A model generated the notes under the pieces. It worked only from the letters and a program-made list of their open reading frames with translations. It searched no databases and had not been told where the DNA came from. Shown here piece by piece: positions 21,085 through 48,307 of a DNA stretch of 64,000 nucleotides (position 1 is the first letter of the stretch; the number at the start of each line of letters is the position of its first letter). A program made the position numbers and the translations under genes. Origin of the DNA: Parascardovia denticolens DSM 10105 = JCM 12538 (GTDB lineage Bacteria > Actinomycetota > Actinomycetes > Actinomycetales > Bifidobacteriaceae); NCBI RefSeq assembly GCF_001042675.1, contig NZ_AP012333.1, positions 1,054,001 to 1,118,000 of the forward strand, given 5' to 3'.

Positions 21085-21802
21085 ATGAGAACTCACCTGA
21101 GAGAACTCCTCACCCTGCGATCGTCATGGATCCTCCTCCTGCTCGCCTTCGCAAGCAAGATCTTGTCAGGCGTCGGGACCTTCCTTGGGGAAAAGACCGG
21201 AAGCCCGATTTCCCCCGACCTGGTCGCCGGAGACGACATGGCTCCTTTCTTCTTCGGGATTTTCGCCGCGATAGCCATTTCGGGTTATTTCTCGCATGGA
21301 ACCATGACTTACGATCTGCTCGCCAACCCGCGCAGGTGGAAGATACAAGTCTCCCGTATCGCTTCCCTCTGCCTCTTGTCTCTCGCCACGGCCGTCGTCG
21401 CAAGCTTGGCAAACTATGGGCTGGTCCAAATCCTCAATCTCGCTATGAACCGGCGGGCCTTGCAACCCTCCTTTTCCAGGCTCCTCTTGAGTTTCTTCCT
21501 CCTGCTCATGTCATCCCTCATCTATTGTTTGATAGGTTCCGGAATCGGTTTTCTTTTGACGACCACAGCCGCAAGCATCTTCGCTTATCTTGGGATCATG
21601 TGGGGGAATCCCCGTATTATCCATGATTTCGGGCGTCTTCAGTTCCTCCCTCATGCAGAAGACGCTGACGGCCACCCCGGCCTACGTGACCGTGCATCTA
21701 GCGCCAAGCGATAAGTGGGCGACGAGCCTGCTCATCCTCTTCCTCTGGGGACTCGCCTGCCAAGTCGCCGGCACTGTGCGTTTCAGGAGGTATAAAGCAT
21801 GA
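21085..21802 (+). pseudogene. ABC transporter permease, frameshifted
   Basis: An ABC-2 type membrane permease of about 238 residues with six hydrophobic segments, partner of the next ATP-binding gene. The first frame runs to about residue 173 (FAYLGIMWGN) and then reads nonsense to a stop at 21714. Removing one G from the G5 run at 21602-21606 restores MWGIPVLSMISGVF and a final membrane segment (LLILFLWGLACQVAG) ending at 21802, where the stop overlaps the ATG of the ATP-binding gene as ATGA. That overlap shows which frame is original. Either the gene is inactivated, or the run slips, or there is a sequencing error. The truncated product would lack the last membrane segment. Confidence 0.8.
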
Positions 21803-22728
21803 CCATGACTTTGAATGTATCGAATGTCGGAAAATCCTATGGGAAAAGGAAGGTCTTGGACTCCATCTCCTTCAGCGTTCGTCCCGGCCAGATCGTCGGT
21901 TTGCTTGGTCCGAATGGAGCCGGCAAAAGCACCCTGCTGAACATCATCTGCTCCCTTCTGAAGGCGGATCACGGGCAGGTGACTTTCAACGGGCAGGCTT
22001 ATCGTGATTTACCTCAGCCCGTGACGACTGTGGGGACCATGCTGAACCCCGAGTGGCTAGACACCCGTCTCAGCTGCCATGACCTGCTTCTCCTCCATGC
22101 CTCCCGCCTCCACCTTCCCGTTCCGCAAAGGTCGACTCATACGATCCTGAAAAAGGTCTCCCTGGATAAAAGCGCGGACCGGAAGGTATCCCAACTCTCC
22201 TTGGGAATGAGACAACGCCTCGCCCTGGGATTGGCCCTCCTGGCCGACCCGGATCTGCTCATCCTCGATGAGCCAATCAATGGCTTGGACGCCGATGGAG
22301 TCGCCTGGATGCGCGATTCCCTCATTTCCTTTGCCCAAGCCGGCAAGACTGTCCTTTTATCTTCCCATCTGATGAGCGAGATGGAGATCACAGCCAGCCA
22401 TGTAGCGATCCTGAATCAAGGTCGGATCCAGAAATTCGATTCCTTGCAAAACCTGCAGAATTCCCGCGCTACGGTTTTCACCACGGTTTCAGACCCCAGC
22501 CGCCTCCTCGCCCTTCTGGCGGATAAAAAAATCGAAGCCCAGCCTTACCAGCTGGGGAAGAACCAACCAAACGATTTCACCTTCATCTGCAAGCAAACCC
22601 AGCCCGAGGACATCTTCGCCTATGCGGAGCAAGCTGGAGCTCCTCTTCGATATCTGGCCTTGGAGCATGCATCCTTGGAATCGATTTATTTCGAGCTGCT
22701 GAACAGAAGCACCGCGGAGGAAGGGTGA
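21799..22728 (+). CDS. ABC transporter ATP-binding protein
   Basis: Nucleotide-binding subunit, 309 residues. Walker A is GPNGAGKST (about 37-45), the signature is LSLGMRQRL, Walker B is LLILDEPINGLD and the switch histidine lies in LLSSHLMSEME. The long C-terminal region after the ATPase is typical of the DrrA/BcrA group exporting peptides or drugs. It overlaps the broken permease by four bases and the next PH-domain gene by GTGA, so all are one operon. Without a functional permease the transporter may be dead. Substrate unknown; bacitracin- or bacteriocin-type resistance is only a guess from the family. Confidence 0.9.
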   Translation: MTMTLNVSNVGKSYGKRKVLDSISFSVRPGQIVGLLGPNGAGKSTLLNIICSLLKADHGQVTFNGQAYRDLPQPVTTVGTMLNPEWLDTRLSCHDLLLLHASRLHLPVPQRSTHTILKKVSLDKSADRKVSQLSLGMRQRLALGLALLADPDLLILDEPINGLDADGVAWMRDSLISFAQAGKTVLLSSHLMSEMEITASHVAILNQGRIQKFDSLQNLQNSRATVFTTVSDPSRLLALLADKKIEAQPYQLGKNQPNDFTFICKQTQPEDIFAYAEQAGAPLRYLALEHASLESIYFELLNRSTAEEG

Positions 22729-23258
22729 CCGGTAAAATGGCCGAACATATGTCGGAGACGTCTGGCATCTTCGCATCAATCAAACTTCAGGACTCCCCTG
22801 TCTTCAGATTTCCGAGGAATGGAAGAGTACGCCTTTCGCTTGAATCGGTGCTCTTCGCCCTGGTCATCCTCGTCGTCATCACCCTTGTCCGTTTTCGCTG
22901 GTTCCCTTCCACGGACCTAGCGGCCTTAAGCCCCTGGTTCATCGTGGTTTTCCTGCTGACCCTCTATGACTTGTTCTACCTGATTCCTCGCCGGATTTTA
23001 TTCACTTTCATCTCCATTACGGATGATTCATTGACTGTTCATGAAGGGAAATTTTTCGAGAGGCTGAAAATGATTCCCATTAATCGCATCACGCTCATCG
23101 AAAAATCGAATGGCCCTCTTTCCAGACTATTCCACCAGGAAAAATTGAAAATCACTTCAACAACAGAAGAAGTATCATTGCCCTATCTAAGTATCGATGA
23201 TGCCGATCGACTCACTTCTTTGATCATTACAAAAAACAGTCGTATAAGGAACGTCTGA
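22725..23258 (+). CDS. Membrane-bound bacterial PH-domain protein (YdbS-like)
   Basis: 177 residues: two adjacent membrane segments (about 38-58 and 66-90) followed by a bacterial PH-like domain (bPH2/DUF304) with RILFTFISITDDSLTV and MIPINRITLIEK, the segment that places such proteins in the YdbS family. The start is GTG overlapping the preceding stop as GTGA. It pairs with the larger YdbT-like gene four bases downstream, as ydbS-ydbT does in Bacillus, where the pair has been linked to resistance to certain antimicrobial peptides. That role here is inference. Confidence 0.82.
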   Translation: MTGKMAEHMSETSGIFASIKLQDSPVFRFPRNGRVRLSLESVLFALVILVVITLVRFRWFPSTDLAALSPWFIVVFLLTLYDLFYLIPRRILFTFISITDDSLTVHEGKFFERLKMIPINRITLIEKSNGPLSRLFHQEKLKITSTTEEVSLPYLSIDDADRLTSLIITKNSRIRNV

Positions 23259-23261
23259 CCT

Positions 23262-24829
23262 GTGGAAAAATTCAGCCCTTTTCTGATATTAAGCAGGCTC
23301 TGGCATCATGCCTTCTCGTCTGCGACCGCCATCGCCGGACTGATGGCGAGCATCCTGGCTTTTCATGGTACCGCTCGTGTCGTTTTGGAAGTCATCTCGC
23401 TCTACTACCTCTTCACTCGGTTTTATCTCCTCTTCTATGATTGGCTGACGACGCGATATCAGGTGACGGATACCGGTCTCGTTCTACGCAAAGGTTTCAT
23501 CACACAACGGCAAATCCAGGTTGCATGGAAGGACATCAAGTTCGTTTCCGAATCAGCGGATCCCATTCTTCAATGGAAACACCTATCAAGCGCGACTCTT
23601 TCGCAAATGACGGATTCAACCGGGGAAATCAAACTTTATGCCATACCACATACTCAATTGGAACGAATAAAGAAATTGATCGGCGAATCCGTTTCTTCCG
23701 TTTCTTCCAAGGCAATGAATCTTGGTAAAGGCGAGAATCGACCGAGAACGGAAGCAGCGTCGAACGGTTCGAAGGCTCTTCCATCTCAAGATTCCTTCGT
23801 CGAATCATCCATGGTTGAGGACAGCGCAAAAGCTAAGGCAAAGTCTCAACGGATTACCCGTAAACTGAGACTCAGGGATTATTTCCTCATCGGATTCACC
23901 TATGCGCAATTTATAATTCTTATACCAACCCTTTTCCCTATTGCAAGGACGATTATTTTTCGGCAAAAATATGATACAGATATCATACATCAGCTGAATT
24001 TCTTCACATCGATTCCGACAAACGAAAAGATCGCCATCATCGTCATGACGATTCTCCTCGGCCTCGGCTATGGAACTTTCCTTTCCTGGATTAAATATTC
24101 AAGGATTGAAGTTCGACTTCTCGCCACCGGATACTCTTATACCGCCGGCCTCATTGAAAAGAAAGAATATTTCATTCCCTCTTCCAGTATTGATTCCATT
24201 ATGATTTCGCAAAACATCCTGATGCGCCTGACTGGACGTTATCAATTATCGGTGATGGCTGGAGGAAATCATGAAGAAAAAAGCAATTATTGCCTCATGC
24301 CTTTGGAAAGCGCCGAGACCATACGAAGATTTCTGGGAACGATTCCTTCTTCGGCGACGATGGCCCACGTCTTTGATAAACAAAAAACCAAAGGAACCCT
24401 CTCGCCATTCCCCTGGCGATCATCATCACCGGAATCCTGTCCGTGCTCTTTCTTATCTACTTCTTCAGGGAATTCTGGATGGTAGTTGCCCTTCTTGGCC
24501 TCGTTTTCCTTTACCTCTGCATAAACCGTCTTTCTTTACAGTACGGATTGGTCAATGTGGATAACCCGAATTTTTGTTATATCGCTCAAGGCTGGGTCAA
24601 CAGGAAATACCATTTCCTATCTGTGAACGAAATACATAGTACAAGGATTTCCACCATCGGCTGGGGAGAGCATAAACCACTTCTTCTGACGATATGCCTC
24701 AAATCAAGCCATACGCGTCGTTTCCATGTTATCTCATTTTCACAAAGCAAAACGAAAAGCATCTTATCGATCATCAGTGCATTCATGGATGCATCCCGCG
24801 CGGATTTCACTGGAAAAAATCCATATTAG
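23262..24829 (+). pseudogene. YdbT-like PH-domain membrane protein, frameshifted
   Basis: Intact, this would be about 522 residues with repeated bPH2/DUF304 modules and several membrane segments. The first frame, from the GTG at 23262, stops at 24485 after an unrelated tail; the remaining module (IYFFREFWMVVALLGLVFLYL through NPY) continues in another frame to 24829. Adding one A to the A6 run at 24382-24387 joins them as DKQKNQRNPLAIPLAIIITG, a sensible loop-to-membrane transition. So the likely lesion is loss of one A. Slippage on the A run is possible but not in the classical -1 heptamer register. It ends overlapping the convergent LuxR gene by 23 bases. Confidence 0.78.
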
Positions 24830-25535
24830 ATTTATACCAATTCGCGACCACTTCCGTCCTGTTTTTCATGTCGAGCTTTTTAAGCATTCGGCTGATGGAA
24901 GACCGAACCGATGAATTCTCCATCACCAGCTTCTCCGCGATTTCTTTGTTCGTCAAACCTTCCGCCAATAGTTTCGCGATTCTTTTCTCACTCTCCGTCA
25001 GCGTTTCGAATTGACGTCTTATGGACAGATCATCATAATCAGGGTCATTAAGCCGAACGCCGTGGGACGACAAAAGGTGACTGACAATTTGAGGAGAAAA
25101 ATACATTCCGAATCTTCTCAGATTCCAGATTGCAGCATGAATCGTGCAAGCGCTTACATTCTCCATAAGGATTCCTCGTATCCCCAGGGACAGGGCAGAA
25201 ACAACCAAATTTTGGTTGAAAGACCTCATGACAAGGAGCAGATCCACCGCGAATCCATGGGAACCGCCGAATAAATCGATGGACCGTTTCAGCTCCTCAT
25301 AAGACAGCTGGGTCCCTCCAAGCAAAACCATATCGAAATCCTCGAATGGCGTTGACCGACACCACTCGATAGCCTCTTGAACCGTTGAAGCTACATGGAG
25401 AAGGCTTATATTACGACTTACTTGTAAAGCCTCACGTAAAGCAGCTCTCATCCGATTATCATATTCAACAGCGATGAGGGACACTTCCATTTTCTCCGTC
25501 ACTGATTCCGCTTTGCTCCCCTTAATTCCATGCAA
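24807..25535 (-). CDS. LuxR/NarL-family regulator with degenerate receiver domain
   Basis: The C-terminal 65 residues form a LuxR helix-turn-helix: LTESEKRIAKLLAEGLTNKEIAEKL then SSVRSSISRMLKKLDMKNRTEVV. The N-terminal half has the length and strand pattern of a response-regulator receiver, but the usual phospho-aspartate strand reads DMVLLGGTQLS, with Gly in place of Asp, so phosphorylation is unlikely. No histidine kinase gene is adjacent. Start choice: TTG at 25535 has GAGGAGG seven bases upstream; ATG at 25490 matches the domain start but has GGAG only three bases away. It is convergent with the ABC/PH operon and may regulate it. Confidence 0.82.
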   Translation of the reverse strand: MHGIKGSKAESVTEKMEVSLIAVEYDNRMRAALREALQVSRNISLLHVASTVQEAIEWCRSTPFEDFDMVLLGGTQLSYEELKRSIDLFGGSHGFAVDLLLVMRSFNQNLVVSALSLGIRGILMENVSACTIHAAIWNLRRFGMYFSPQIVSHLLSSHGVRLNDPDYDDLSIRRQFETLTESEKRIAKLLAEGLTNKEIAEKLVMENSSVRSSISRMLKKLDMKNRTEVVANWYKSNMDFFQ

Positions 25536-25625
25536 AGCCGCGCCTCCTCTCCGCAAAGTCCGTTTGTTACATCACAAATTTCCTTCTACATTGTGCTCCC
25601 CCCCGACTTTTTACTCACAGAATGA

Positions 25626-25665
25626 TCAGGGGGAATCCCTGGCTGCTGACAAGGACTCCCCCTGA
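25626..25665. repeat. Inverted repeat between the LuxR gene and the NADH oxidase gene
   Basis: A 13-base stem with one mismatch (TCAGGGGGAATCC against GGACTCCCCCTGA) and a 14-base loop. It lies downstream of the oxidase gene and upstream of the LuxR gene. No clear U-run follows, so terminator or operator cannot be told apart. Confidence 0.45.
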
Positions 25666-25717
25666 GACGGACTCCATCCGCCCCCCTGCTTTTCAGCGTT
25701 GAACTTTCAAAAAGGCG

Positions 25718-27064
25718 TTAAAGGGCCTTCAACGCAGCCATGGTAATGTAGTTATACGGCTGATTGAAATGAGGCATGAAGAAGAAGTCACAGAGAGCTA
25801 TGCGTTCGATGGTCACCTTCTCCTGTATGGCCAAAGAGAACATATGGATGGTGGCGGACATATCGTATTCACCCATGAGCTGGGCGCCGATCACCTGATG
25901 GTTGTCTTCGCGGTAAACGATACGGATCCGGATGGTGGGGTTCGGCCCCGCCTCGTCCATGAAAGCCGGCTTCTGCCGGTCCTCGAATTCCGTCATTCGG
26001 GCCAGGATTCCGCTCTGGGCCGCCGTCTCCACGGTCTGCCCCGTGCATACCATGCGCAGGCCGTAAAGGCACAAGGCGGAAGATCCCTGAACCCCCAAAG
26101 ACTCGACAGGGCGGCCGGCCACGTTCATCCCCGCGATGAGACCGGAACGGACTGCGTTCGTGGCCAGGGCGATGTAGGAAGTCGCCTGCACCGAATTGTC
26201 GTAAACGGTAGAGCAGTCGCCGACAGCATAGACGTCGGGCAGGCTGGTGCGTTGGTGCTTATCCACCAGGATGGCTCCGTTACGGAAACGGGTCAAATCC
26301 TTCCCGGCCAAAGAGGAATTCGGACGGAAGCCAATGCACATGACTACTAAATCGGTCTGATAGCTGCCTTTATCGGTTATCACGGTCTTCACCCGGTCGG
26401 TCCCCTCGAAGCGCTCGACCTTCTCCCCCAGGGCGAGCTTGATTCCATGCTCCCGCAGCCGAGCGGCCATGACGTCAGAGAAATCCCGGTCGAAATGGGT
26501 GCCGAGAATCCTGTCCAAGGCGTCGATGAGAGTGACCTCCTTCCCCACCCGTTGGTAGGCCTCAGCCAGTTCGGCACCTATATATCCGGCTCCCACGATG
26601 GTCACTTTGGTGATGGACCCGTCCTCTTTAATCTGTCTGACGGCCTTGCTGGCGTCCTGGAAGATCTTGGCGCGCTGTATATAAGGAAGGTCTATGCCTG
26701 GTATGCGGGGGATGATGGGCGAGGAACCTGTGGAAAGAATCAGTTTATCATAGGATTCCTCCCCTTCGAGTCCATCCTTGTCCCGGAAATGGATCTTCTT
26801 GCCCCGGTAGTCCACTGAAGTTACTTCAGCCTCCAGATGGACGTGGGCCCCGGCCTCTTCGAGTTTCTCCCTGCTGGAGTAGAACAGCCCTTCCCCATGG
26901 CTGATCTGGCCGCCTATCCACAGGGCCATCCCACAACCCAGGAAACTGATATTGCTGTTCTTGTCGAAAACATGCACGTCAGCTTCAGGGTCCAGAGCCA
27001 GCACTTGGTTCGTTGCGGCGGTTCCGGCGTGGTTCGCTCCGACGATGATCACTTTTTGTCCCAT
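25718..27064 (-). CDS. nox: NADH oxidase / CoA-disulfide reductase family flavoprotein
   Basis: FAD-dependent pyridine-nucleotide oxidoreductase, 448 residues. It has the FAD Rossmann motif VGANHAG (8-14), the redox cysteine in SFLGCGMAL (Cys44), the NADH motif VGAGYIGAELAEA and the second FAD motif DVYAVGDCSTVYD, with a C-terminal dimerisation domain. The single cysteine near residue 44 is typical of water-forming Nox enzymes, which remove oxygen in anaerobes; CoA-disulfide reductase is the alternative. The open frame extends upstream to 27214, but GGAGGA directly before the ATG at 27064 and the family N terminus set the start there. Confidence 0.9.
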   Translation of the reverse strand: MGQKVIIVGANHAGTAATNQVLALDPEADVHVFDKNSNISFLGCGMALWIGGQISHGEGLFYSSREKLEEAGAHVHLEAEVTSVDYRGKKIHFRDKDGLEGEESYDKLILSTGSSPIIPRIPGIDLPYIQRAKIFQDASKAVRQIKEDGSITKVTIVGAGYIGAELAEAYQRVGKEVTLIDALDRILGTHFDRDFSDVMAARLREHGIKLALGEKVERFEGTDRVKTVITDKGSYQTDLVVMCIGFRPNSSLAGKDLTRFRNGAILVDKHQRTSLPDVYAVGDCSTVYDNSVQATSYIALATNAVRSGLIAGMNVAGRPVESLGVQGSSALCLYGLRMVCTGQTVETAAQSGILARMTEFEDRQKPAFMDEAGPNPTIRIRIVYREDNHQVIGAQLMGEYDMSATIHMFSLAIQEKVTIERIALCDFFFMPHFNQPYNYITMAALKAL

Positions 27065-27291
27065 GACTCCTCCTTTGGATGAGGGATTCAGTCCTATCTT
27101 AGCGAAGCCAGAGGCTATGGTTTTATGCTGCCAGCAGGAATCCCGCGCAGGACCAACCCTCGGATCCCCACCGCTTCCTACCCTTTTCCCTGGCTTTCCG
27201 ATGGTCGCTTCCATGCGTGCATCGATTCACCGGACTATCCGGGGGTCCATCAACCTCTTTCGCCGGGGCTTCCTCCCGTCTTATCAGGGTT

Positions 27292-28200
27292 TCATCCCAC
27301 ATGACGGCGGAAGAACTCCATCTCCTCCTTATTGCATTCCAGCGCGGTTTTGTTGCGAACATCACAGTGGAAAACATGCCCTTGAGGGTTCTTCTCATCC
27401 CCGTAGGAATGGAACTCATGCCTGATCCCTTTGGCTAGGAGGAAGCCGTCCAGACGGACGGTGCAATCACGGATGAAATCCTGGTTGGAAGTCATGAGGA
27501 AAAGCGGAGGCAGCCGCTTGGTCATGTACTTCTCCGTCTCCATCAGGTCTTTCTTCTCTTTGACGACGTCGGCGGTGAAGTAGGCGTCGATCCCGTTGGA
27601 GATCATGCCCTTCGCGGTGATGAAGGAGGCCCCGCAATTGATGGCTGCGGCCCGCACGGTCAGATCCGGCCTCTCGTAGCCGAATTTGGCCCGATAGTCA
27701 GGGTTGGTCAGGATGGTCAGGTATTGGTCGGCCATCTGACCGCCGGCGCTGTCCCCGACGACGAAAACGTTGCTTGCATCTAGGTTGTATTCGCCCACAT
27801 GGTCGGCGACCCAATGGAAGACCAAGTTCACATCGTCCATCTCCCCGGGGAATTCCACCTGCGGGGGCAGGCGGTAGGTGAAATTGACCACGGCGAAACC
27901 GTAAGTGGCCAGATGGAGGCAGTAGAACTGATAGGTCTCCTTGGACCCGTAGATCCATCCGCCGCCATGGATGTTGATGATGACCGGAACCGGATCGTCG
28001 CTTTTATCCGCCGTCCGATCGGAAGGCATGGAGATGTCGAGCAGATTGCCCGGCTTCTTGGCCGGGCCGTAAACGATGTCGTTGAAACGGGTGATGCCTT
28101 CCAGATCCGTGGGAAGACCGGCGTCGCGTTTATCGTCGTTGGACTTGGCCGACATGGCGAAGGCCTTGGCCGCCAAAAGGGACTTGAGTGTCGCTGTCAT
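27292..28200 (-). CDS. Alpha/beta hydrolase (HSL-family esterase)
   Basis: 302 residues. The oxyanion-hole motif HGGGW and the nucleophile elbow GDSAGG are both present, as in hormone-sensitive-lipase type esterases; the catalytic acid and histidine lie in the C-terminal part (DFIRDC, GHVFHCD). No signal peptide is seen, so it is cytoplasmic. Substrate is unknown, probably short acyl esters. AAAGGAG five bases before the ATG at 28200 rejects the longer frame to 28260. It lies downstream of the defence helicase gene with 123 bases between, and is not an expected component of that system. Confidence 0.88.
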   Translation of the reverse strand: MTATLKSLLAAKAFAMSAKSNDDKRDAGLPTDLEGITRFNDIVYGPAKKPGNLLDISMPSDRTADKSDDPVPVIINIHGGGWIYGSKETYQFYCLHLATYGFAVVNFTYRLPPQVEFPGEMDDVNLVFHWVADHVGEYNLDASNVFVVGDSAGGQMADQYLTILTNPDYRAKFGYERPDLTVRAAAINCGASFITAKGMISNGIDAYFTADVVKEKKDLMETEKYMTKRLPPLFLMTSNQDFIRDCTVRLDGFLLAKGIRHEFHSYGDEKNPQGHVFHCDVRNKTALECNKEEMEFFRRHVG

Positions 28201-28323
28201 TGATGCTCCTTTGCCTGGGACCGCTTGTGCGCCCGCGAATCGTCCATGCGGATCGTCCACATGGACCGTCCGCGCGGATCTTATGGATCCGCGAACCCTC
28301 TGGGCCCATTATAGGCCCAATGG

Positions 28324-30654
28324 TCACCGCCGGTAAGCAGCTTGAGACATACTGGCCGAAGAAAGATGTCGAGGGCCTGAGCCCGCAGCCGCGGTCGGAG
28401 ACTGCGCGTTCCCATGCCTTTCTTCTATCCACTGTTTGACCTTCTCCCGCATGGAATCACAGTTGAGTATTCCGTAGGCGAACCCTTTGCGTAAGAGCTC
28501 GACCGGCACATACTCGTCGTATTTATCGAAGATAGGCACCTCCTTGGGGTAGAGAAGGTCGCTGGGTTTGAAGCCCTTGTTCACCTCTTCCTTGACGACC
28601 CGATAGAAATCGTCTTCGTCGCCGTCCATGGAGAACTGGATGAAGAAGGGACGGGAGGAATCCAGCTTCTTCAATCCCAGCCGCGGGGCGCACCTGATTT
28701 TGAGGAAACGCTCCAAAGCCAGGAAAGAGTAAGTCCCCATCCAAGGCAAAAGACACCACATTTTTCCCCCAAGATGGATGAGATGCCGGTTTTCGGCGCC
28801 GGACTGGATGGCGGTCCTGCGGGCCTGATCCAGCCTGGCTACGGCGTTGCTCATCAGATAAGGGTAAGCGGTCTCTTCCTGCAAGACCCGCCTCATCCGT
28901 TCCAGGATGCGGTCGTGGATGTCCCCCGGGCATTGGCCGAAGTAGGCGGGGACCCTCCCCTTGATGGCGTCCACATAGACGACGTGCTTCTTCACATCCA
29001 CATCGCAGACCAACCACACGCGGCCAGCTATGGCGATTTTCTCTCCTGGGGGCGGAGGCTGGACGGTCGTCCCCAACTCCTGGGATTGGTAACGGACGGT
29101 GAATTCTTCGTTTTCCTGGAAAACGCCGTAGAACTTGAAGGAATTGACGACCCTCTCCCCTTTGAGGCCTATGATGAGGCCCCCTTGAGGGGTCGTTTGT
29201 ATGTGTCCGATCTGGATGAGGTGCCTCAAAAGCAGGCGGTAATCATCCTGGCTGATCCGGTGGAAGTAGGTCAGGTTCAGCACCTGGGAGGCCAAAGCGG
29301 CCGGGGACAGTTCCCCATTGGAAGCCAGGGTGCTCATGGTCTGATGATAGAGGAGGCTGAAAGGCAGGCGGTCCAGCCGGGGCGGCTCCACCCAATTCTC
29401 TTCCAGATAAAGCTGGATCAAGGCGATGCCTTGCAGGAGTTTCCACGGTATGGTGGCCGGAAGCAGAGCCCGGATCTCAGGCTCGTCCTCCCGCATGACG
29501 AACCACATCTGCGAAGGTTGCCCCCGCCTGCCGGTCCGGCCCATCCTTTGCAGGAAAGAGGAGACGGTCCAAGGAGCGTCGATTTGAAAGGCCCTTTCCA
29601 GCTTGCCGATGTCGATTCCCAGCTCCAAGGTGGAGGTGGTGACCGTCGTATAGATCTGTTCCGGATCTTTCATGAGCATCTCGGCCGTCTCCCGGTAGGA
29701 GGCGGAGAGATTCCCATGGTGGATGAGGAAGCGGTCCGCCTCATGGTTCAGCTCGCAGTAATGCCGCAGCTCATTGGTCACGGACTCGCATTCTTCCCGC
29801 GAGTTGACGAAGACCAGACATTTCTTTCCACGCGTATGCTCGAAGATATAGGCCAAGCCGGGATCGGCGGCTTGAGGGGCCTTGTCGGTCGGCTTTTCCT
29901 GCAGGTGGGCGGCCGAGGCTATCTGCCTGCCTCCAGCGGTTTGCTCGTCTTTCACATAGAAGTGTTCCATGGACAGCTGCCAGGTCGATTTCGGGGACTC
30001 GAATCGGGGAATGGCGGTTTTGCGTCCCGTTCCTGCCGACAGGAATTCCCCGGTTTTCTCCGGATCCCCCATGGTCGCCGAAAGCCCGATCCGGCGCGGG
30101 TTGACCTGTGCCAGGCGGGATAGGCGTTCAATCAGGCAGAGGGTCTGCCCGCCCCTGTCCCCTCTAAGCAGGGAATGCACCTCATCGATGACCACGTAGC
30201 GCAGGTCCCCGAAAAGGCGGGGGATGGCCATGTGTTTATGCATCACCATGGATTCCAAGGATTCAGGGGTGATCTGCAGAATACCGGAAGGGTTCCTCAT
30301 CAACCTGTCCTTATGGGATTGGGACACGTCCCCATGCCAATGCCAGACAGGGATCCCTGCCTGATCGCACAGCTCGTTCAGACGGAGGAACTGGTCGTTG
30401 ATGAGGGCTTTCAGAGGACCGATATAGAGACAGCCGATGGAGGCCGGCGGCCGCTCCCAGAATTCGCTGATGATGGGGAAAAAGGCGGCTTCCGTCTTGC
30501 CGGAGGCGGTGGAGGCGGTGAGGAGGAGGTTGTCATCGGAGTTGAAGATCACGTCGGCCGCGGCGACCTGCACGGCCCGTAGATTCCTCCAGCCGTTCCG
30601 ATAGATGAAATCCTGCACGAAAGGCGCGTACCTGTCAAAGACGTCCATATTCAC
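28324..30654 (-). CDS. sngC: DEAD/DEAH-box helicase, Shango SngC-like (Lhr/BrxHI type)
   Basis: A 776-residue superfamily 2 helicase. Motif I is TASTASGKTEA (about 46-56), motif II IDEVHSLL, motif III GLSATMG, motif V TSTLELGIDIG and motif VI QRMGRTGRRG. The DEVH box plus the ratchet and long C-terminal half place it with Lhr-like helicases such as BrxHI of type 2 BREX. Together with the two upstream genes (DUF2791 ATPase, TerB-domain protein) it matches the three-gene anti-phage system Shango, in the same order. It is read last, 108 bases after the ATPase gene. No break or missing helicase motif was seen, so it should be functional. Confidence 0.88.
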   Translation of the reverse strand: MNMDVFDRYAPFVQDFIYRNGWRNLRAVQVAAADVIFNSDDNLLLTASTASGKTEAAFFPIISEFWERPPASIGCLYIGPLKALINDQFLRLNELCDQAGIPVWHWHGDVSQSHKDRLMRNPSGILQITPESLESMVMHKHMAIPRLFGDLRYVVIDEVHSLLRGDRGGQTLCLIERLSRLAQVNPRRIGLSATMGDPEKTGEFLSAGTGRKTAIPRFESPKSTWQLSMEHFYVKDEQTAGGRQIASAAHLQEKPTDKAPQAADPGLAYIFEHTRGKKCLVFVNSREECESVTNELRHYCELNHEADRFLIHHGNLSASYRETAEMLMKDPEQIYTTVTTSTLELGIDIGKLERAFQIDAPWTVSSFLQRMGRTGRRGQPSQMWFVMREDEPEIRALLPATIPWKLLQGIALIQLYLEENWVEPPRLDRLPFSLLYHQTMSTLASNGELSPAALASQVLNLTYFHRISQDDYRLLLRHLIQIGHIQTTPQGGLIIGLKGERVVNSFKFYGVFQENEEFTVRYQSQELGTTVQPPPPGEKIAIAGRVWLVCDVDVKKHVVYVDAIKGRVPAYFGQCPGDIHDRILERMRRVLQEETAYPYLMSNAVARLDQARRTAIQSGAENRHLIHLGGKMWCLLPWMGTYSFLALERFLKIRCAPRLGLKKLDSSRPFFIQFSMDGDEDDFYRVVKEEVNKGFKPSDLLYPKEVPIFDKYDEYVPVELLRKGFAYGILNCDSMREKVKQWIEERHGNAQSPTAAAGSGPRHLSSASMSQAAYRR

Positions 30655-30762
30655 CTGCCTTCATTATGCCCGTCACGTTCGTTATATCCGTCATGCCCGT
30701 TAAATCGCTGTTCCCGTTGAATCCATCATATCCGTTCGCCTTTGCCCTTCGCCACGTCCCCG

Positions 30763-32082
30763 TCAGATCTGGAATTGGGCGAACTCATCCTGTCCACCCT
30801 CTTCGAGGATCGGGTTCTGGGCGTAAGTGAAATCGTCGGATTTCATGACCTCTTCCAAGCCCAACCCCGGATTCTGATAGAGGATATCCAGCAATTCGAT
30901 GAAGTCCCGGATGACTTCCCTAGGGGTGATATGTCTGTCCGCCCCGATGCGGCCGAACTCCACTTGGATGAAACGGGCAAGGTCCTGATCGGTCAACCTC
31001 TGGTCGTAGCCGTACAGGCCGGCGTGGATGGAAGCCAGCTTCCCCACCAAGACCAGCATCTCCTCATAGGTCAGAGGCTCCAGATGGATGACCGGGGCCA
31101 AAAGGTCCCGATGCTCTCCCCCGAAACGCCCGGTCGCCAACCGCGAGCGCAAGGCCTCGTAGCTGTAAACCCCCCTGCGCCTGTCTTCCATGCATTCCGG
31201 AGTCCCGGACATGATGACCCCCAGATAATGGGCCTTGCCTTGCATGGCGTCGTTATACATGGTCAGGATCTTCTCGTAATTATTCTGCCGGGTGATGGAA
31301 TTGGGGATCTTATAGATGTTGACCAGCTCATCGATGAGGATGAGCATGCCGGCATACCCGGCCCCTTTGAGGAAGGCGGCGAAGACTTTCAAATAGTCGT
31401 ACCAGTCGTCGTCCGTGATGATGACGTTCACCCCCAGCTCTTGCCTAGCTTCGGTCTTGGTCTGGTATTCGCCCCTGAACCATTTGACCACTTTGGCCTT
31501 GGTCTCGTCATCCTGGCCTAGGTAGGCGTGATAGTAGAGGGTGAGCAGGCGGGCGAAATCGAAGCCGTGGACCAGGTCGTTGAGTTCGTAGATGGCATCC
31601 GAGATGGCCTTATCCACAAGGCCTCCCAAGCTGGGGTCGGCCAAAGACAAGCCCTCCCGGTCCATCACCTCCTTCTGGACCTGGTTGATCCAACGGTCCA
31701 AGACCAGGGTCAGGGCTCCTCCTTCGGGCCGGGTCTTGGTGGACATGTTCTGGACCAACTCCTTGTAGGTGGCCAAGCCTTGGCCGCGCGTGCCCTGAAG
31801 CCGCCGTTCCGGGGAAAGGTCGGCGTCGACCACCACGAAGTTCTTGGCCATGACATAGTTGCGGATGGTCTGCAGGAGGAAGCTTTTCCCGGCCCCGTAG
31901 CGGCCGACGACGAAGCGGAAGGAAGCCCCTCCCTCCGCGATGATGTCGGCATCATGAAGGAGGGCGTCGATCTCATTCTTCCGACCCACCGTGATGTAAG
32001 GCAGGCCAAGACGAGGCACGACGCCGCCTTTGAGCGAGTTGATCAAAGCCTGGCCAATGCGCCGAGGAACCGTTGCCCCCAT
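30763..32082 (-). CDS. sngB: DUF2791 P-loop ATPase, Shango SngB-like (BrxD type)
   Basis: 439 residues of the DUF2791/BREX ATP-binding family. Walker A is GRYGAGKSF (60-68) and Walker B LILIDELVNIY (about 255-265). The N terminus PRRIGQALINSLKGGVVPRLGLPYITVGR is the family hallmark, and MSGTPECMEDRRRGVYSYEALRSRL is another strongly conserved block. Related BrxD proteins act with an Lhr-type helicase in BREX. Here it sits between the TerB-domain gene (64 bases upstream) and the helicase gene, the SngA-SngB-SngC arrangement. Expected to power or gate the complex on invading DNA, which is inference. Confidence 0.88.
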   Translation of the reverse strand: MGATVPRRIGQALINSLKGGVVPRLGLPYITVGRKNEIDALLHDADIIAEGGASFRFVVGRYGAGKSFLLQTIRNYVMAKNFVVVDADLSPERRLQGTRGQGLATYKELVQNMSTKTRPEGGALTLVLDRWINQVQKEVMDREGLSLADPSLGGLVDKAISDAIYELNDLVHGFDFARLLTLYYHAYLGQDDETKAKVVKWFRGEYQTKTEARQELGVNVIITDDDWYDYLKVFAAFLKGAGYAGMLILIDELVNIYKIPNSITRQNNYEKILTMYNDAMQGKAHYLGVIMSGTPECMEDRRRGVYSYEALRSRLATGRFGGEHRDLLAPVIHLEPLTYEEMLVLVGKLASIHAGLYGYDQRLTDQDLARFIQVEFGRIGADRHITPREVIRDFIELLDILYQNPGLGLEEVMKSDDFTYAQNPILEEGGQDEFAQFQI

Positions 32083-32145
32083 GATGCCCCTTTGGAATCG
32101 TCGATAGATTTTCGAACATTTGTTCTATTTTATCAAAAGCCTTCG

Positions 32146-33888
32146 TCATCCATCCAAACCGTAGTGTTCGGCCAAATCCCGCCGATAATCGTCCACGATC
32201 CGCGCTTGCGGATCGGGTTCTATCACCGTATCGGAGAAGAATTCGAACAGATGGTCATTGATCGAATCCACGAGGATCGATTCCATGAGCCCCTCTTGGG
32301 AAAGCCAGGAGAGGTCCTCGCCGGCCAAGAGGCAGCGCAGGTAGCGGTCTTCCTCTTCCGTCAAGCCCCATTCGTCCTTTCCTCCGCCAGAATCCACGGC
32401 TTCTTCGAAAGTCTCGACTTCGTCAGGTGTCAAAAGCTCGTGTTGCCTATCCTCTGCGTCCTCTTCCTCCTCTATATCTTCTTCCTCATCGACGATGAGC
32501 TTGTCCCGAGTGAGGGCGGAGTCCTGGCGGATGGCGTCCAAACGGGAGAAATCAATGGTAATCCGCCGGGCCTGCGCCCGTCGCCTCTCTTCCAGGACGG
32601 CCTCTTTCTCCTCCAAGGCCAAAGAGGAGATCCACCGCGGCAAGGAGGACGAAGAAGGGGACGGATCGTCCCGGGCGAGGAGGGCCAGGAGGCCAGTGAG
32701 GAGATTGGCGACTTTCCCTCGTTTCTTGCGCGTGGCCGGATAGGAGGTCACGGTCCAGGAGCCCTGATGGAAACGATAAAGACGCAGAGGGTCCCAGTCC
32801 ACATCGAAAGTCCGGCCATCCTTCCGGGCGTAAAAGAGATAGCGACGGAAGGGGAAATAAGGTTCCACGGTTCGAGGGCCGAAGTAATCGTCGAAAAGGC
32901 TGGATTTCCGCCGACGCCGGTAGTGGTCGGCCATCCCCCGCCAGACTCGGGCCACCACCGCTTGGACCAGCCCCTCATCCTCGCGGGCGGCCCCGTCGAG
33001 CAGGGCGCGTTCGTCTTTGGCCGCCAAACCAGCCAAGGCAGAGAAAAGCTCCCCATCCTCATGCCGATCAGGGTCGCGGACCAAGAAAAGCTCCCCGTCC
33101 CAGACCTCGTCAGGGCCAGGCCTATCATCACCTAAATTCTCCCGCTCCCCCTCCGACCGATACTGAAGCCGGAAATCCTTCAAGAGCTGGTTGGCGTCGA
33201 AGAAGGCGGAAGGATCCAAAGCCCGGTAATCATCCACCAATTCTCGTAAACGGGCATATCCTTCCTCCACCCCACCCACGCCTACCAGATTGATCAACTC
33301 GCTGGCATAGAGCTGGGCGAAAGTCGTGGATTCAGCCTGCTTCTCCCCTTTCCTCCAGCGGGAGCGCCAGCCGAAATACCCGCGCAATTCGGGGGAAGAA
33401 AGGCTTTTATAAGACGGCCGTTGATGGAAGACGGGCAGGGGGTACAGATAGTCGTCCTCATAGTCCGCCATGAGGAGGGCTTCCTGATAGAAGATGTGCT
33501 CCGGGGTCCTGAACCCTTTGAACCATTTGCCCCCTTGAATCTCCAAAGAACGCATGGCTTGGATCTTCGCAGGAATCTCCACCGCAGCCGACCGCTGTGA
33601 CCTGCCAATCGGCCTGCCATAAGCGCCCGCGGACCTGTGGTAAACGCCGTCCGATCCGCCAAAGCCGCCTATCGATCCGTCTTGAGTGGCGGCCTGTCGG
33701 TTCTGATCGGCGATTGACCGGGCATGAGGATAATAACTCGACAGGTCAGGCGCTTCCTGGCCGGCCGTCGGAGGAAGGGGCGGGGTGTCAGAATCCGAAT
33801 CCACCTCATCGATCCTGCCGGTCGGACGGTCAGGAACAGGCTGATCATGATAGTAGCCATGGGAAAAGGAATCCATGACCTTATCCAT
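32146..33888 (-). CDS. sngA: TerB-N/TerB-C domain protein, Shango SngA-like
   Basis: 580 residues. After a polar, proline-rich N-terminal stretch, the TerB-N region shows MADYEDDYLYPLPVF, PSYKSLSSPELRGYFGWRSRWRKG and YASELINLVGV at about 140-205. An acidic linker (EEEDIEEEEDAED) leads to a TerB-C region at about 500-578 with LTEEEDRYLRCLLAG, LVDSINDHLFEFFSDTVIE and IVDDYRRDLAEHYG. This domain pair next to a DUF2791 ATPase and an Lhr-like helicase is characteristic of the Shango defence system. The gene is first in the operon; repeats and a dyad lie in its promoter region. Exact molecular role of the TerB partner is not established from sequence. Confidence 0.85.
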   Translation of the reverse strand: MDKVMDSFSHGYYHDQPVPDRPTGRIDEVDSDSDTPPLPPTAGQEAPDLSSYYPHARSIADQNRQAATQDGSIGGFGGSDGVYHRSAGAYGRPIGRSQRSAAVEIPAKIQAMRSLEIQGGKWFKGFRTPEHIFYQEALLMADYEDDYLYPLPVFHQRPSYKSLSSPELRGYFGWRSRWRKGEKQAESTTFAQLYASELINLVGVGGVEEGYARLRELVDDYRALDPSAFFDANQLLKDFRLQYRSEGERENLGDDRPGPDEVWDGELFLVRDPDRHEDGELFSALAGLAAKDERALLDGAAREDEGLVQAVVARVWRGMADHYRRRRKSSLFDDYFGPRTVEPYFPFRRYLFYARKDGRTFDVDWDPLRLYRFHQGSWTVTSYPATRKKRGKVANLLTGLLALLARDDPSPSSSSLPRWISSLALEEKEAVLEERRRAQARRITIDFSRLDAIRQDSALTRDKLIVDEEEDIEEEEDAEDRQHELLTPDEVETFEEAVDSGGGKDEWGLTEEEDRYLRCLLAGEDLSWLSQEGLMESILVDSINDHLFEFFSDTVIEPDPQARIVDDYRRDLAEHYGLDG

Positions 33889-45107: not shown

Positions 45108-47654
45108 TTAAATATACCGCCCGGTGATGCTTTCTGCTGACCGCCGAATTTCCTGGGGACTGCCGACAGCCACAACCCTACCGCCTTCCTCGCCCCCTCC
45201 CGGCCCCATGTCCACGATGTAATCGGCGTTGCGGATCAGGTCAAGATCATGCTCGATGACGATGACCGTCGCCCCTTGCTGGATGAGGGTTTCGAAAACG
45301 TCCAAGAGGGTCCTGACATCCTTGGGGTGGAGGCCGATAGTGGGCTCATCGAAGACGAAGACCGATCCCGTCTGCCCCTTGCCCATTTCGCTGGCCAGCT
45401 TGAGCCGCTGGGCCTCTCCCCCGGAAAGCCCCGGAGTGTCCTCGCCCAAGGTCAAGTAGCCCAGCCCTAAATCATGCAGGACCTGGAGCCGCCGCTGCAG
45501 AAGGGAGAGACCCTTGCAGGCCGCCAGAACCTGGTCGACGCTCATGTTCATCAAATCAGGCAGGCTGTAATCCTCGCCGTCCTTCATGGCCTTAACCACC
45601 TCGTGAGCCTTGGCGCTGTACCGGGATCCCCGGCAATCCGGGCAGGTCACGTCCACATCAGGCAGGAACTGGACATCCAGGGAAATCCGCCCCGTCCCGT
45701 CGCAGGTCGGGCAACGCAGGCCGCCGGTGTTGTAGGAGAAATCGCCGGCCTTGTGCCCGCTGTGTTTGGCGAGCGCCGTCCGGGCGTAGACCTTGCGGAG
45801 CTCATCATGAACTCCGGCGTAGGTGGCCACGGTGGAACGCACGTTGATTCCGATCGGGGTCGCGTCAATCAGCTTCACTTGGCGGATACCCTCCGCCTGC
45901 AAAGAGACCACATGCCGGGGTGACTTCTGTTTGCTGATCATCGCCGTCAAAGCGGGAATGAGGCTTTCGAGGATCAGCGTGGTCTTGCCGGAGCCGGAGA
46001 CCCCCGTGACCACGGTCAGACGGCCCTGGGGGATGCTGACTTCCAGCGGACGGACGGTATGGATGGCGTCGGTGGTCAGGGTGATCGAGCCCAGATCGAA
46101 GAGGTGGTCATCAGCGATCCACTCCCGCAGCCGGGAGGATTGGCCGCCAATCAGATGGTCTCCTCCGGCCAGCTGCTTCCGCAGAAAAGGCCCGATGACG
46201 GAGGAAGACGAGCCGGCGACCTGAGGGACCGTCCCTTGGCCGATGACACGGCCGCCATCGGATCCAGCCCCTGGCCCCAGCTCGATCAGCCAGTCGGCGT
46301 GGGAAAGCACCTGGATGTCGTGATCAACCAGGACCACGCTGTTCCCATCCGCCACCAAGTCATCCATCACCCCGGTCAGGCCTTGGACATTGTAAGGATG
46401 AAGGCCGATGGAAGGCTCATCCAGCACATAAAGCACCCCGGTCGTCCGGTTCCGCACTGCGCGGGCCAGCTGCACCCGTTGGCGTTCCCCTGTAGACAGA
46501 GTGGAGGCGGCCCGATCCAAAGACAGGTATCCCAGGCCCAAGTCAAGCAGGCGCCGGGAAATGTCCAGGAAGGATTCGCAGATGCTCTCCCCCATCGGTC
46601 GCATTTCCTGAGGAAGGGATTCAGGCACGGATGACACCCAGGAAACCAGCTGGGTCAAAGTCATAGCCGCGGCTTGCCCTAGGTCGACATCTCCTATCCT
46701 CGGAGCTCGAGCCGCTTCCGAGAGTCTGGTCCCCTGGCAATCCGGGCAGACCCCCTCGGTCAGAAAGCGCTCGATCCTCTTCATGCCTTTGTCGTCTTTG
46801 ACTTTGGCCAAGGCGTTCTCCACCGTGCGGACGGCGCTGTAGTAGGTGAAATCCATCTCCGCCGATTGCTGGGTCTTGGGATTCACATAGATGATGTGCT
46901 TCTTCTCGGCAGGCCCATGGTAGACGATCTCCTTCTCCTCGCCGGTCAAGTCTTTGAAGGGGACATCCGTGCGCACCCCCATCTCCCGACAGACGTCCTT
47001 CATGAGGGCCCACATGAGGGTCCCCCAGACGGCGACGGCTCCCTGGTCGATGGTCAGTTCTTCGTTGGGAACCAAGGCCGCCTCATTCACGGTCCGGGTG
47101 ATGCCCGTGCCTCCGCAACGAGGGCAGGCTCCCCGACTGTTGAAGGCCAGGTCTTCGGCCCCCGGCCCATAGAATTTCTCTGCGCAGACGGGGCAGGTGA
47201 TCTCCTGCATAGTGGCCACAGCGAAGGAAGGCGGGCAGTAATGACCCTGGGGGCAACGATGGCTGGCCAGACGGGAGAACATGAGACGCAGACTGTTCAG
47301 TAGTTCGGACATGGTGCCGAAAGTGCTGCGGATCCCGGGGACGCCCGGCCGCTGATGAAGGGCCAAGGCAGCGGGAATGTAACGGACCTCGTCCACATCG
47401 GCCCGGGCTGCCTGAGTCATACGGCGGCGGGTGTAGGTAGACAAGGATTCCAAATACCTCCGAGACCCTTCGGCGTAGAGGACACCCAAGGCCAGGGATG
47501 ACTTCCCTGACCCGGAGACGCCTGCGATGCCGACTATCTTGTTGAGGGGGATGTCAACATCGACCTTCTGCAGATTATGGACTCGAGCCCCTCGTACTAG
47601 AATGGCTACTGGAATCTTTGAAACTACCGGAGCCGCGGCGGAAGAACCGGTCAT
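45108..47654 (-). CDS. UvrA-like ATPase (UvrA paralogue)
   Basis: 848 residues with two ABC ATPase modules as in excinuclease subunit [12 protein letters not shown] near the N terminus and [11 protein letters not shown] in the second half, signatures [11 protein letters not shown] and [11 protein letters not shown], Walker B regions [11 protein letters not shown] and [11 protein letters not shown], and zinc-type CPRCGG, CPTCDG and CPDCRG clusters. It is about 100 residues shorter than true UvrA and the region that binds UvrB is reduced, as in UvrA paralogues linked to drug tolerance. A separate uvrA is expected elsewhere. AAAGGGG five bases before the ATG at 47654 sets the start. Confidence 0.9.
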
Positions 47655-47686
47655 CGTCGCCCCTTTCCTATTTCTTGGTGTCCTTC

Positions 47687-48307
47687 TTATACTAACCCAC
47701 ATTGCATCAGGTAGGCGATGACCACCAAGCCGAGGGCGAGTTTGAAGGGGACTCCGAAAGTGAAGTAGGATTTCTTGGTCTTATGACGGACGGAGTACAT
47801 GCCGATCAGCCCGCCCAAAGCGCCACCGGCCAGGCACAACCCCAGCAGAGCAGCCTCAGGAATCCGGGATTCCCCTTTCTCCGCCCGCTTTTTATCGATG
47901 ATGAAGAGACACAAGGTCACAAGATTGACGACAAGCAAGTAAATCCCCAAAATCTTATGATCCCTATGCCCCACAGCCTGAATCAGCTGGCTGAAGCCAA
48001 AGCGGACCGGACCATAAACGTTCAGCAGAACAAGAATCCAGACGATGACCATTTCCAAGGAAAGGAAGAAGATGGCCACATTGTTTTTGGAGACCTTCCG
48101 CAACCAAATCAGGAAGGCGATAAAAAGTCCCAGGCCTCCCCCAGCCACCGCAGCCAGACTGGAGAAAGCGAGGCCTACTTCTTCGCCCTGACTTCCTTCA
48201 CCTTTCGCCCTGACGATCAGCGAGGTGACCGCGTAAGCCAAGAAAGACAAGGCGTTCACTGCGATCAGGTAAATTTGGAAGCCGTCCAAACCCAAAAATC
48301 CATGCAT
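47687..48307 (-). CDS. DUF1294 membrane protein with tandemly duplicated domain
   Basis: 206 residues, about six membrane segments. The C-terminal half is a standard DUF1294 module: [40 protein letters not shown] and RHKTKKSYF. The N-terminal half repeats the same layout in diverged form ([38 protein letters not shown]), lacking the RIPE and RHKT residues. So the gene arose by internal duplication, or a fusion, and only the second copy keeps the family's charged motifs. Function unknown. It is 32 bases upstream of the UvrA paralogue gene. Confidence 0.85.

What the first reader, a model, noticed from the sequence alone, without database searches (positions are those of the whole stretch)
28324..33888. 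Intact Shango-type anti-phage system (SngABC) in a bifidobacterial chromosome
Seen in sequence: three consecutive genes on one strand encode a TerB-N/TerB-C protein, a DUF2791 P-loop ATPase and a DEVH helicase of the Lhr/BrxHI kind, all with complete Walker and helicase motifs. Known: this triad in this order is the Shango defence system, whose ATPase and helicase resemble BrxD and BrxHI of type 2 BREX. Inference: it is active here, unlike many nearby accessory genes. Its GC is like the host's, so it is not a very recent import.
Basis: partly seen in the sequence, partly recalled or inferred. Interest (0 to 1): 0.8.

Follow-up and report, generated by a model that had tools for sequence, protein, structure and literature searches.

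The report
Shango anti-phage system in an oral bifidobacterium
Three neighbouring genes form an intact copy of Shango, an already known bacterial defence against phages, in a relative of the bifidobacteria from human dental caries; it is a new member of a known kind, and its one loose end is that one of its three proteins changes far faster than the other two.

Summary
Window 33888-28324 (minus strand) holds sngA, sngB and sngC, each an open frame matching PADLOC's Shango models best; SngB and SngC score far above the BREX models. The genome has exactly the published length of Parascardovia denticolens JCM 12538. G001, matching Scardovia inopinata by length, carries a diverged Shango between the same two flanking genes; in G002 those genes lie about 180 bp apart without Shango. 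In the family, 13 of 189 genomes, this one included, match SngB, one in broken form. Eleven family copies do not form one clade, so acquisition happened more than once. Inferred mechanism: the AAA+ ATPase SngB loads the Lhr/BrxHI-type helicase SngC onto invader DNA, with the TerB-N/TerB-C protein SngA as recogniser or adaptor. No nuclease was recognised in the triad. SngA diverges about 3.5 to 3.8 times faster than its partners and has a variable N-terminus. Activity here is untested. Verdict: new member of a known kind, modest interest.

The parts
32146..33888 (-). sngA: TerB_N/TerB_C protein, 580 aa, with about 90 low-confidence N-terminal residues
   Evidence: (PADLOC SngA 5.2e-50)
32905..33612 (-). 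TerB_N domain of SngA (residues 93-328)
   Evidence: PF13208, 1.2e-40; coordinates converted by hand
32173..32601 (-). TerB_C domain of SngA (residues 430-572); the protein's end (about 504-580) models as a winged-helix-like fold
   Evidence: PF15615, 4.1e-35; weak, Z up to 5.8; coordinates converted by hand
30763..32082 (-). sngB: BrxC/BrxD-type P-loop ATPase, 439 aa
   Evidence: PF10923, 2.1e-169; PADLOC SngB 3.7e-187
31882..31905 (-). Walker A of SngB (residues 60-67)
   Evidence: coordinates converted by hand
28324..30654 (-). sngC: SF2 DEVH helicase of the Lhr/BrxHI kind, 776 aa, GTG start
   Evidence: (PADLOC SngC 2.2e-274)
30493..30516 (-). Walker A (motif I) of SngC (residues 47-54)
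   Evidence: coordinates converted by hand
30175..30186 (-). DEVH box of SngC (residues 157-160)
   Evidence: coordinates converted by hand

Best explanation
This is a complete Shango (SngABC) defence locus, present long enough in this oral bifidobacterial lineage for SngB and SngC to have diverged about as much as neighbouring genes. Shown: three intact genes in Shango order, family membership, an Lhr-like C-terminal half of SngC, and the uneven conservation of the three proteins. Inferred: SngB, an ORC/Cdc6-type AAA+ ATPase by its kinship to BrxD, forms an oligomer and loads or activates the SngC helicase on DNA, as proposed for the homologous BrxD-BrxHI pair of type 2 BREX. SngA, mostly helical with a small sheet and a winged-helix-like end, recognises the invader or a partner and recruits the SngB-SngC machine. 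SngC then unwinds or remodels phage DNA, blocking its replication or exposing it to host nucleases. No nuclease domain was recognised in the triad. Confidence in membership is about 0.97; confidence in this mechanism in outline is about 0.45. The figure below is for the statement as a whole.
For: PADLOC best models are SngA, SngB and SngC; order and spacing. SngC's C-terminal half (residues 396-776) aligns with M. smegmatis Lhr (5v9x) over 268 residues, Z 9.3, rmsd 3.1, and its first domain with winged helices, including that of Hel308 (Z 11.6 over 74 residues). PMC12839542 (passages) describes BrxHI as helicase, wHTH, beta-barrel and Lhr CTD, and BrxD as an ORC-Cdc6 AAA+ ATPase possibly loading BrxHI. 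PMC12278908 (passages) reports that SngC, BrxHI, DruE and DpdJ helicases form a potentially distinct clade. Anti-phage activity of Shango was shown in P. aeruginosa, with E. coli also cited (PMC10250203, passages). In 73 triads, the window's residue is kept in at least 98% of rows at 172 positions of SngB and 240 of SngC, and in at least 90% at only 29 positions of SngA.
Against: No experiment on this locus. The passages seen give no Shango mechanism. PMC10250203 reports modest plaque effects, not seen with all phages. PMC12839542 calls BrxHI Ski2-like, whereas PMC12278908 sets SngC and BrxHI apart from known subfamilies, so the helicase class is unsettled. SngA gave no clear PDB fold match, and no Shango protein was found in the PDB by sequence (the YjbR-like match concerns an N-terminal domain that the window protein lacks). 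Without a recognised nuclease, the blocking step is unassigned. I did not model SngB, the helicase core or the complex.
Confidence: 0.6

Rival explanations
1. It is Shango by descent but acts mainly against plasmids or other mobile DNA, not phages; SngABC unwinds incoming or replicating circular DNA.
For: Other helicase-containing systems act on plasmids: ApsAB and DdmDE, and Shango sits in some of the E. coli islands that hold ApsAB-like operons (PMC11096173, passages). SngB-like genes lie on 680 of 72,556 plasmid records (E up to 1e-30) and none of 50,697 phage records (E up to 1e-20).
Against: P. aeruginosa Shango lowers plating of many phages 10-100 fold (PMC10250203). Being carried on plasmids fits plasmids carrying defence rather than being its target. 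All plasmid matches are under 60% identity; of two read, one is a full triad and one is not.
Confidence: 0.15
2. The triad is an abortive system: SngB-SngC sense phage DNA or replication and SngA is the effector that stops the host.
For: SngA diverges fastest and has a variable N-terminus, as effectors can. In Hachiman a helicase senses DNA and a separate partner is the effector (PMC12278908, start of abstract).
Against: The SngA model is helical with a small sheet, and no enzyme domain was matched in it. [quoted passage not shown]
Confidence: 0.2
3. A type 2 BREX remnant, that is a BrxD-BrxHI pair left beside an unrelated TerB gene.
For: SngB and SngC do match BrxD and BrxHI models.
Against: Shango models score far better. 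SngB is under the BREX_BrxD curated cut-off (158.6 against 350 bits). An SngA-like frame was found in 89 of 91 loci collected by SngB (one of the two misses has only about 100 bases before sngB, the other about 1.4 kb). Apart from SngB's own family, no BREX core protein was matched among the window proteins scanned.
Confidence: 0.02

Closest known systems
Shango (SngABC), PADLOC models PDLC03958-03960; P. aeruginosa PA14 system of PMC10250203
   Same: All three proteins, order A-B-C on one strand; SngB and SngC models matched almost end to end, SngA over positions 49-525 of 528.
   Different: SngA has about 90 low-confidence residues before TerB_N. SngC runs 36 residues past the end of the model match. 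No other defence system was recognised in the further window proteins scanned (20 in Pfam; 10 in PADLOC).
Type 2 BREX BrxD-BrxHI pair
   Same: ATPase of the same Pfam family; SngC's C-terminal half resembles Lhr over 268 residues, as described for BrxHI.
   Different: None of BREX's other core proteins was recognised among the window proteins scanned; matches to BREX models are much weaker than to Shango.
Lhr helicase (M. smegmatis, 5v9x)
   Same: SF2 core by sequence (1.8e-26) and C-terminal half by fold (Z 9.3, 268 residues, 3.1 A).
   Different: Lhr is a host repair helicase (recalled); SngC comes with SngA and SngB.

Membership tests
Shango | SngA-type TerB protein | tested here: met
   PADLOC SngA 5.2e-50, the only match, profile positions 49-525 of 528; TerB_N and TerB_C. 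PF05099, listed for Shango in PMC10952713, was not matched.
Shango | SngB ATPase with complete Walker motifs | tested here: met
   PADLOC SngB 3.7e-187, positions 5-438 of 439; GRYGAGKS and LILIDE
Shango | SngC DEAD/DEAH-type helicase with complete motifs | tested here: met
   PADLOC SngC 2.2e-274, positions 3-718 of 720; motifs
Shango | Three genes adjacent, one strand, order A-B-C | tested here: met
   all three found in order in most of 91 loci, some with inserted genes
Shango | Protection against phages | not testable with these tools
   shown for other Shango copies only (PMC10250203, passages)
Type 2 BREX | BrxD and BrxHI as best matches of the pair | tested here: not met
   SngB and SngC models far better; BREX_BrxD 158.6 bits under its 350 cut-off
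Type 2 BREX | BrxC, PglX, PglZ and PglW alongside | tested here: inconclusive
   none found among the window proteins scanned; not every window ORF was scanned and the rest of the genome was not searched for them

The most novel reading that the evidence does not exclude
In Shango, SngA is the fast-evolving, modular recognition subunit. It carries exchangeable N-terminal domains, a YjbR-like domain in many relatives and none recognised here, in front of a TerB-N/TerB-C adaptor that docks onto an almost unchanging SngB-SngC DNA-loading machine. Target choice would then lie in SngA.
Probability: 0.35. Interest if true: 0.55.

Novelty: new member of a known kind. Interest (0 to 1): 0.3.

Why it matters
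It adds an oral actinobacterial Shango to a system whose tested copies, in the passages seen, come from P. aeruginosa and E. coli. If the uneven evolution of SngA proves to reflect recognition, swapping SngA between copies would directly test what Shango senses, which the passages seen here do not explain.

Tried and rejected
BREX remnant: rejected on scores. Recent import: not supported. Against the G001 copy the protein-changing distances (dN) are SngB 0.203 and SngC 0.208, close to the neighbours cupin 0.180, uraA 0.145 and pcrA 0.222; synonymous sites are saturated, so dN/dS could not be given, and my G001 end points for cupin and pcrA ran past the genes. GC of the three genes is 58.4-58.9%. 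Catalytic fold in SngA: Foldseek gave nothing under E 0.001; the second look gave mostly weak winged-helix matches for residues 504-580 (Z up to 5.8). Foldseek also gave nothing under E 0.001 for the SngC C-terminal half. Promoters and terminators: counts were below the shuffled mean, so not informative.

Shango in Bifidobacterium in print: one search found 38 papers with both words, and the 20 listed titles are not on phage defence; one search found 86 papers with at least three of five terms, and none of the 15 listed holds both words. Neither listing was complete. One origin for the family's Shango copies: rejected for SngB+SngC on 40 of 73 triads that I chose (all 11 family copies with full triads plus 29 others); p-AU 1e-50, quick tree with two long rows.

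Rows dropped. Conservation counts use 73 of 91 loci; 18 had a missing or short member. SngA was found in 89 of 91 and SngC in 81 of 91; among the ten without SngC most contigs end soon after sngB, but L021 and L028 have over 3 kb more. The alignment A1 holds 58 of 63 SngA rows and A2 53 of 63 SngC rows. The 80 loci were picked by exact SngB peptides, which inflates SngB conservation; SngC was not used for picking, and the 11 family copies show the same pattern. SngA homologues were gathered with a profile grown from the window's SngA, so sharing of TerB_N among them is partly built in. The one SngA homologue with a RecU match was not identified; rescanned 14 of the 58. Searching the order with SngC gave 2 of 396 under a strict limit (E 1e-150), a lower bound.

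Full report
What is there. Three minus-strand genes lie end to end at 33888-32146, 32082-30763 and 30654-28324, 63 and 108 bp apart. Pfam gives TerB_N plus TerB_C, BrxC_BrxD (PF10923), and DEAD plus Helicase_C. PADLOC gives SngA (5.2e-50), SngB (3.7e-187; next BrxD 3.2e-46) and SngC (2.2e-274; next BrxHI 6e-125). In NCBIfam no Shango model was among the matches shown, and the BrxD model stays far below its cut-off. The ATPase and helicase motifs are complete.

Whose genome. The window is bases 1054001-1118000 of a single contig of 1,890,857 bp. That is exactly the length published for Parascardovia denticolens JCM 12538, from human dental caries (PMC4432353, whole text). The contig of G001 is 1,797,862 bp, exactly the length that paper gives for Scardovia inopinata JCM 12537. 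Both names are inferred from lengths only. The same paper reports a CRISPR region at 1,334,669-1,340,788, about 250 kb from Shango if the numbering is the same.

Site and history. The three genomes held for the genus share pcrA, an intervening gene, uraA (this name is recalled), the alpha/beta hydrolase and the CMD-cupin gene. G001 has sngABC between hydrolase and cupin. G002 has no SngB match in its genome and no match to any of the three proteins in the stretch fetched; there the two flanking genes are convergent and about 180 bp apart. So Shango was gained or lost at one site. In the window's genome the hydrolase is turned round relative to both relatives, and a block (21085-27214) lies between uraA and hydrolase that was not matched in the G001 or G002 stretches. 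SngB and SngC differ from the G001 copy about as much as three neighbours do, while SngA differs three times more (dN 0.67 against 0.20-0.21).

Spread. SngB matches occur in 13 of 189 family genomes, the window's own included; one is broken into three pieces, two of them with a stop inside. On an SngB+SngC tree of 40 of the 73 triads, the window and G001 group together (99). They lie in a supported set of 12 rows with two Selenomonas, four Desulfovibrio, two Clostridiales, one Lachnospiraceae and one Eubacterium locus; the other nine family copies lie elsewhere. Holding the 11 family copies as one clade is rejected (p-AU 1e-50). The nearest SngB outside the family is 73% identical over its length, in Selenomonas sp. 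F0473 and S. artemidis, with a Desulfovibrio MAG equal at 73%; that these Selenomonas are oral is recalled. SngB-like genes occur on 680 of 72,556 plasmid records and 0 of 50,697 phage records. Of two plasmid loci read, one (Paenibacillus) has the TerB-ATPase-helicase triad. The other (Klebsiella) has the ATPase beside transposases with no helicase or TerB gene listed within about 5 kb; that gene table is incomplete by its own description.

Uneven evolution. In 73 full triads (of 91 loci), median pairwise identity is 32% for SngA, 75% for SngB and 70% for SngC, with correlated identities (0.92-0.94) that argue against frequent swapping of SngA. SngA is less conserved than SngB in 2628 of 2628 pairs and than SngC in 2627 of 2628; the median divergence ratio is 3.77 and 3.46 over 2601 pairs. 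These pairs are not independent. Leaving out the SngA N-terminus changes little (33%). An N-terminal domain matching a profile grown from the L064 N-terminus occurs in 41 of 73; 23 have under 60 residues there and were not scanned, and nine did not match, some of which look like diverged relatives by eye. So 41 is a lower bound, and some short N-termini may be cut starts. Pfam calls YjbR in 3 of 58 aligned members, and the alignment's profile matches PSPTO_3016 (2kfp, 2.6e-7), recalled to be of the YjbR kind. The window's SngA lacks a match; its first 90 or so residues model with low confidence.

Mechanism. The SngA model (mean pLDDT 79.8) is mostly helical with a small sheet and a winged-helix-like end (weak). 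The C-terminal half of SngC (mean pLDDT 76.9) matches Lhr over 268 residues (Z 9.3, 3.1 A) and many winged helices. PMC12839542 (passages) proposes that BrxD may load BrxHI, and the SngB-SngC pair is its counterpart by sequence. From this I infer a loader-helicase machine directed by SngA. The absence of a nuclease rests on family scans and on two models, not on a full structural search.

Verdict. A real, intact, ordinary Shango in an oral bifidobacterial lineage. The rate contrast and modular N-terminus of SngA are the points worth following.

Noticed in passing
window 21085-24829: A lower-GC stretch (down to 44% in 2-kb steps) with an ABC-transporter-like ATPase and PH-domain-like membrane proteins (my reading of the translations); ORFs at 21085-21714 and 23262-24485/24443-24829 look frame-shifted.
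   Followed up: no
window 27292-28260: The alpha/beta hydrolase next to sngC is inverted relative to both genus relatives, with a block at 21085-27214 not matched in the fetched stretches of G001 and G002.
   Followed up: partly
L058, L070, L072, L075, L076 (between sngA and sngB): These loci carry extra genes between sngA and sngB, including a recurring protein that begins MILYHGSNTEVKEI in L070, L072 and (with one letter changed) L076, lies inside a longer frame in L058, and is present only by its end in L075; L036 has DNA-methyltransferase-like genes (my reading) between sngB and sngC.
   Followed up: no
L029 20-3322 and L115 1508-4666: Very long SngA homologues (1100 and 1052 aa) with about 600 residues before TerB_N and no Pfam match there.
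   Followed up: no
window 45108-47702: An 864-aa ABC-ATPase with a UvrA DNA-binding domain, probably a UvrA paralogue; its PADLOC mad3 match (1.1e-68) is likely only shared ATPase sequence.
   Followed up: partly
G033 contig 12, 88489-89794: A family relative carries a broken sngB (three pieces, a stop inside two of them).
   Followed up: no
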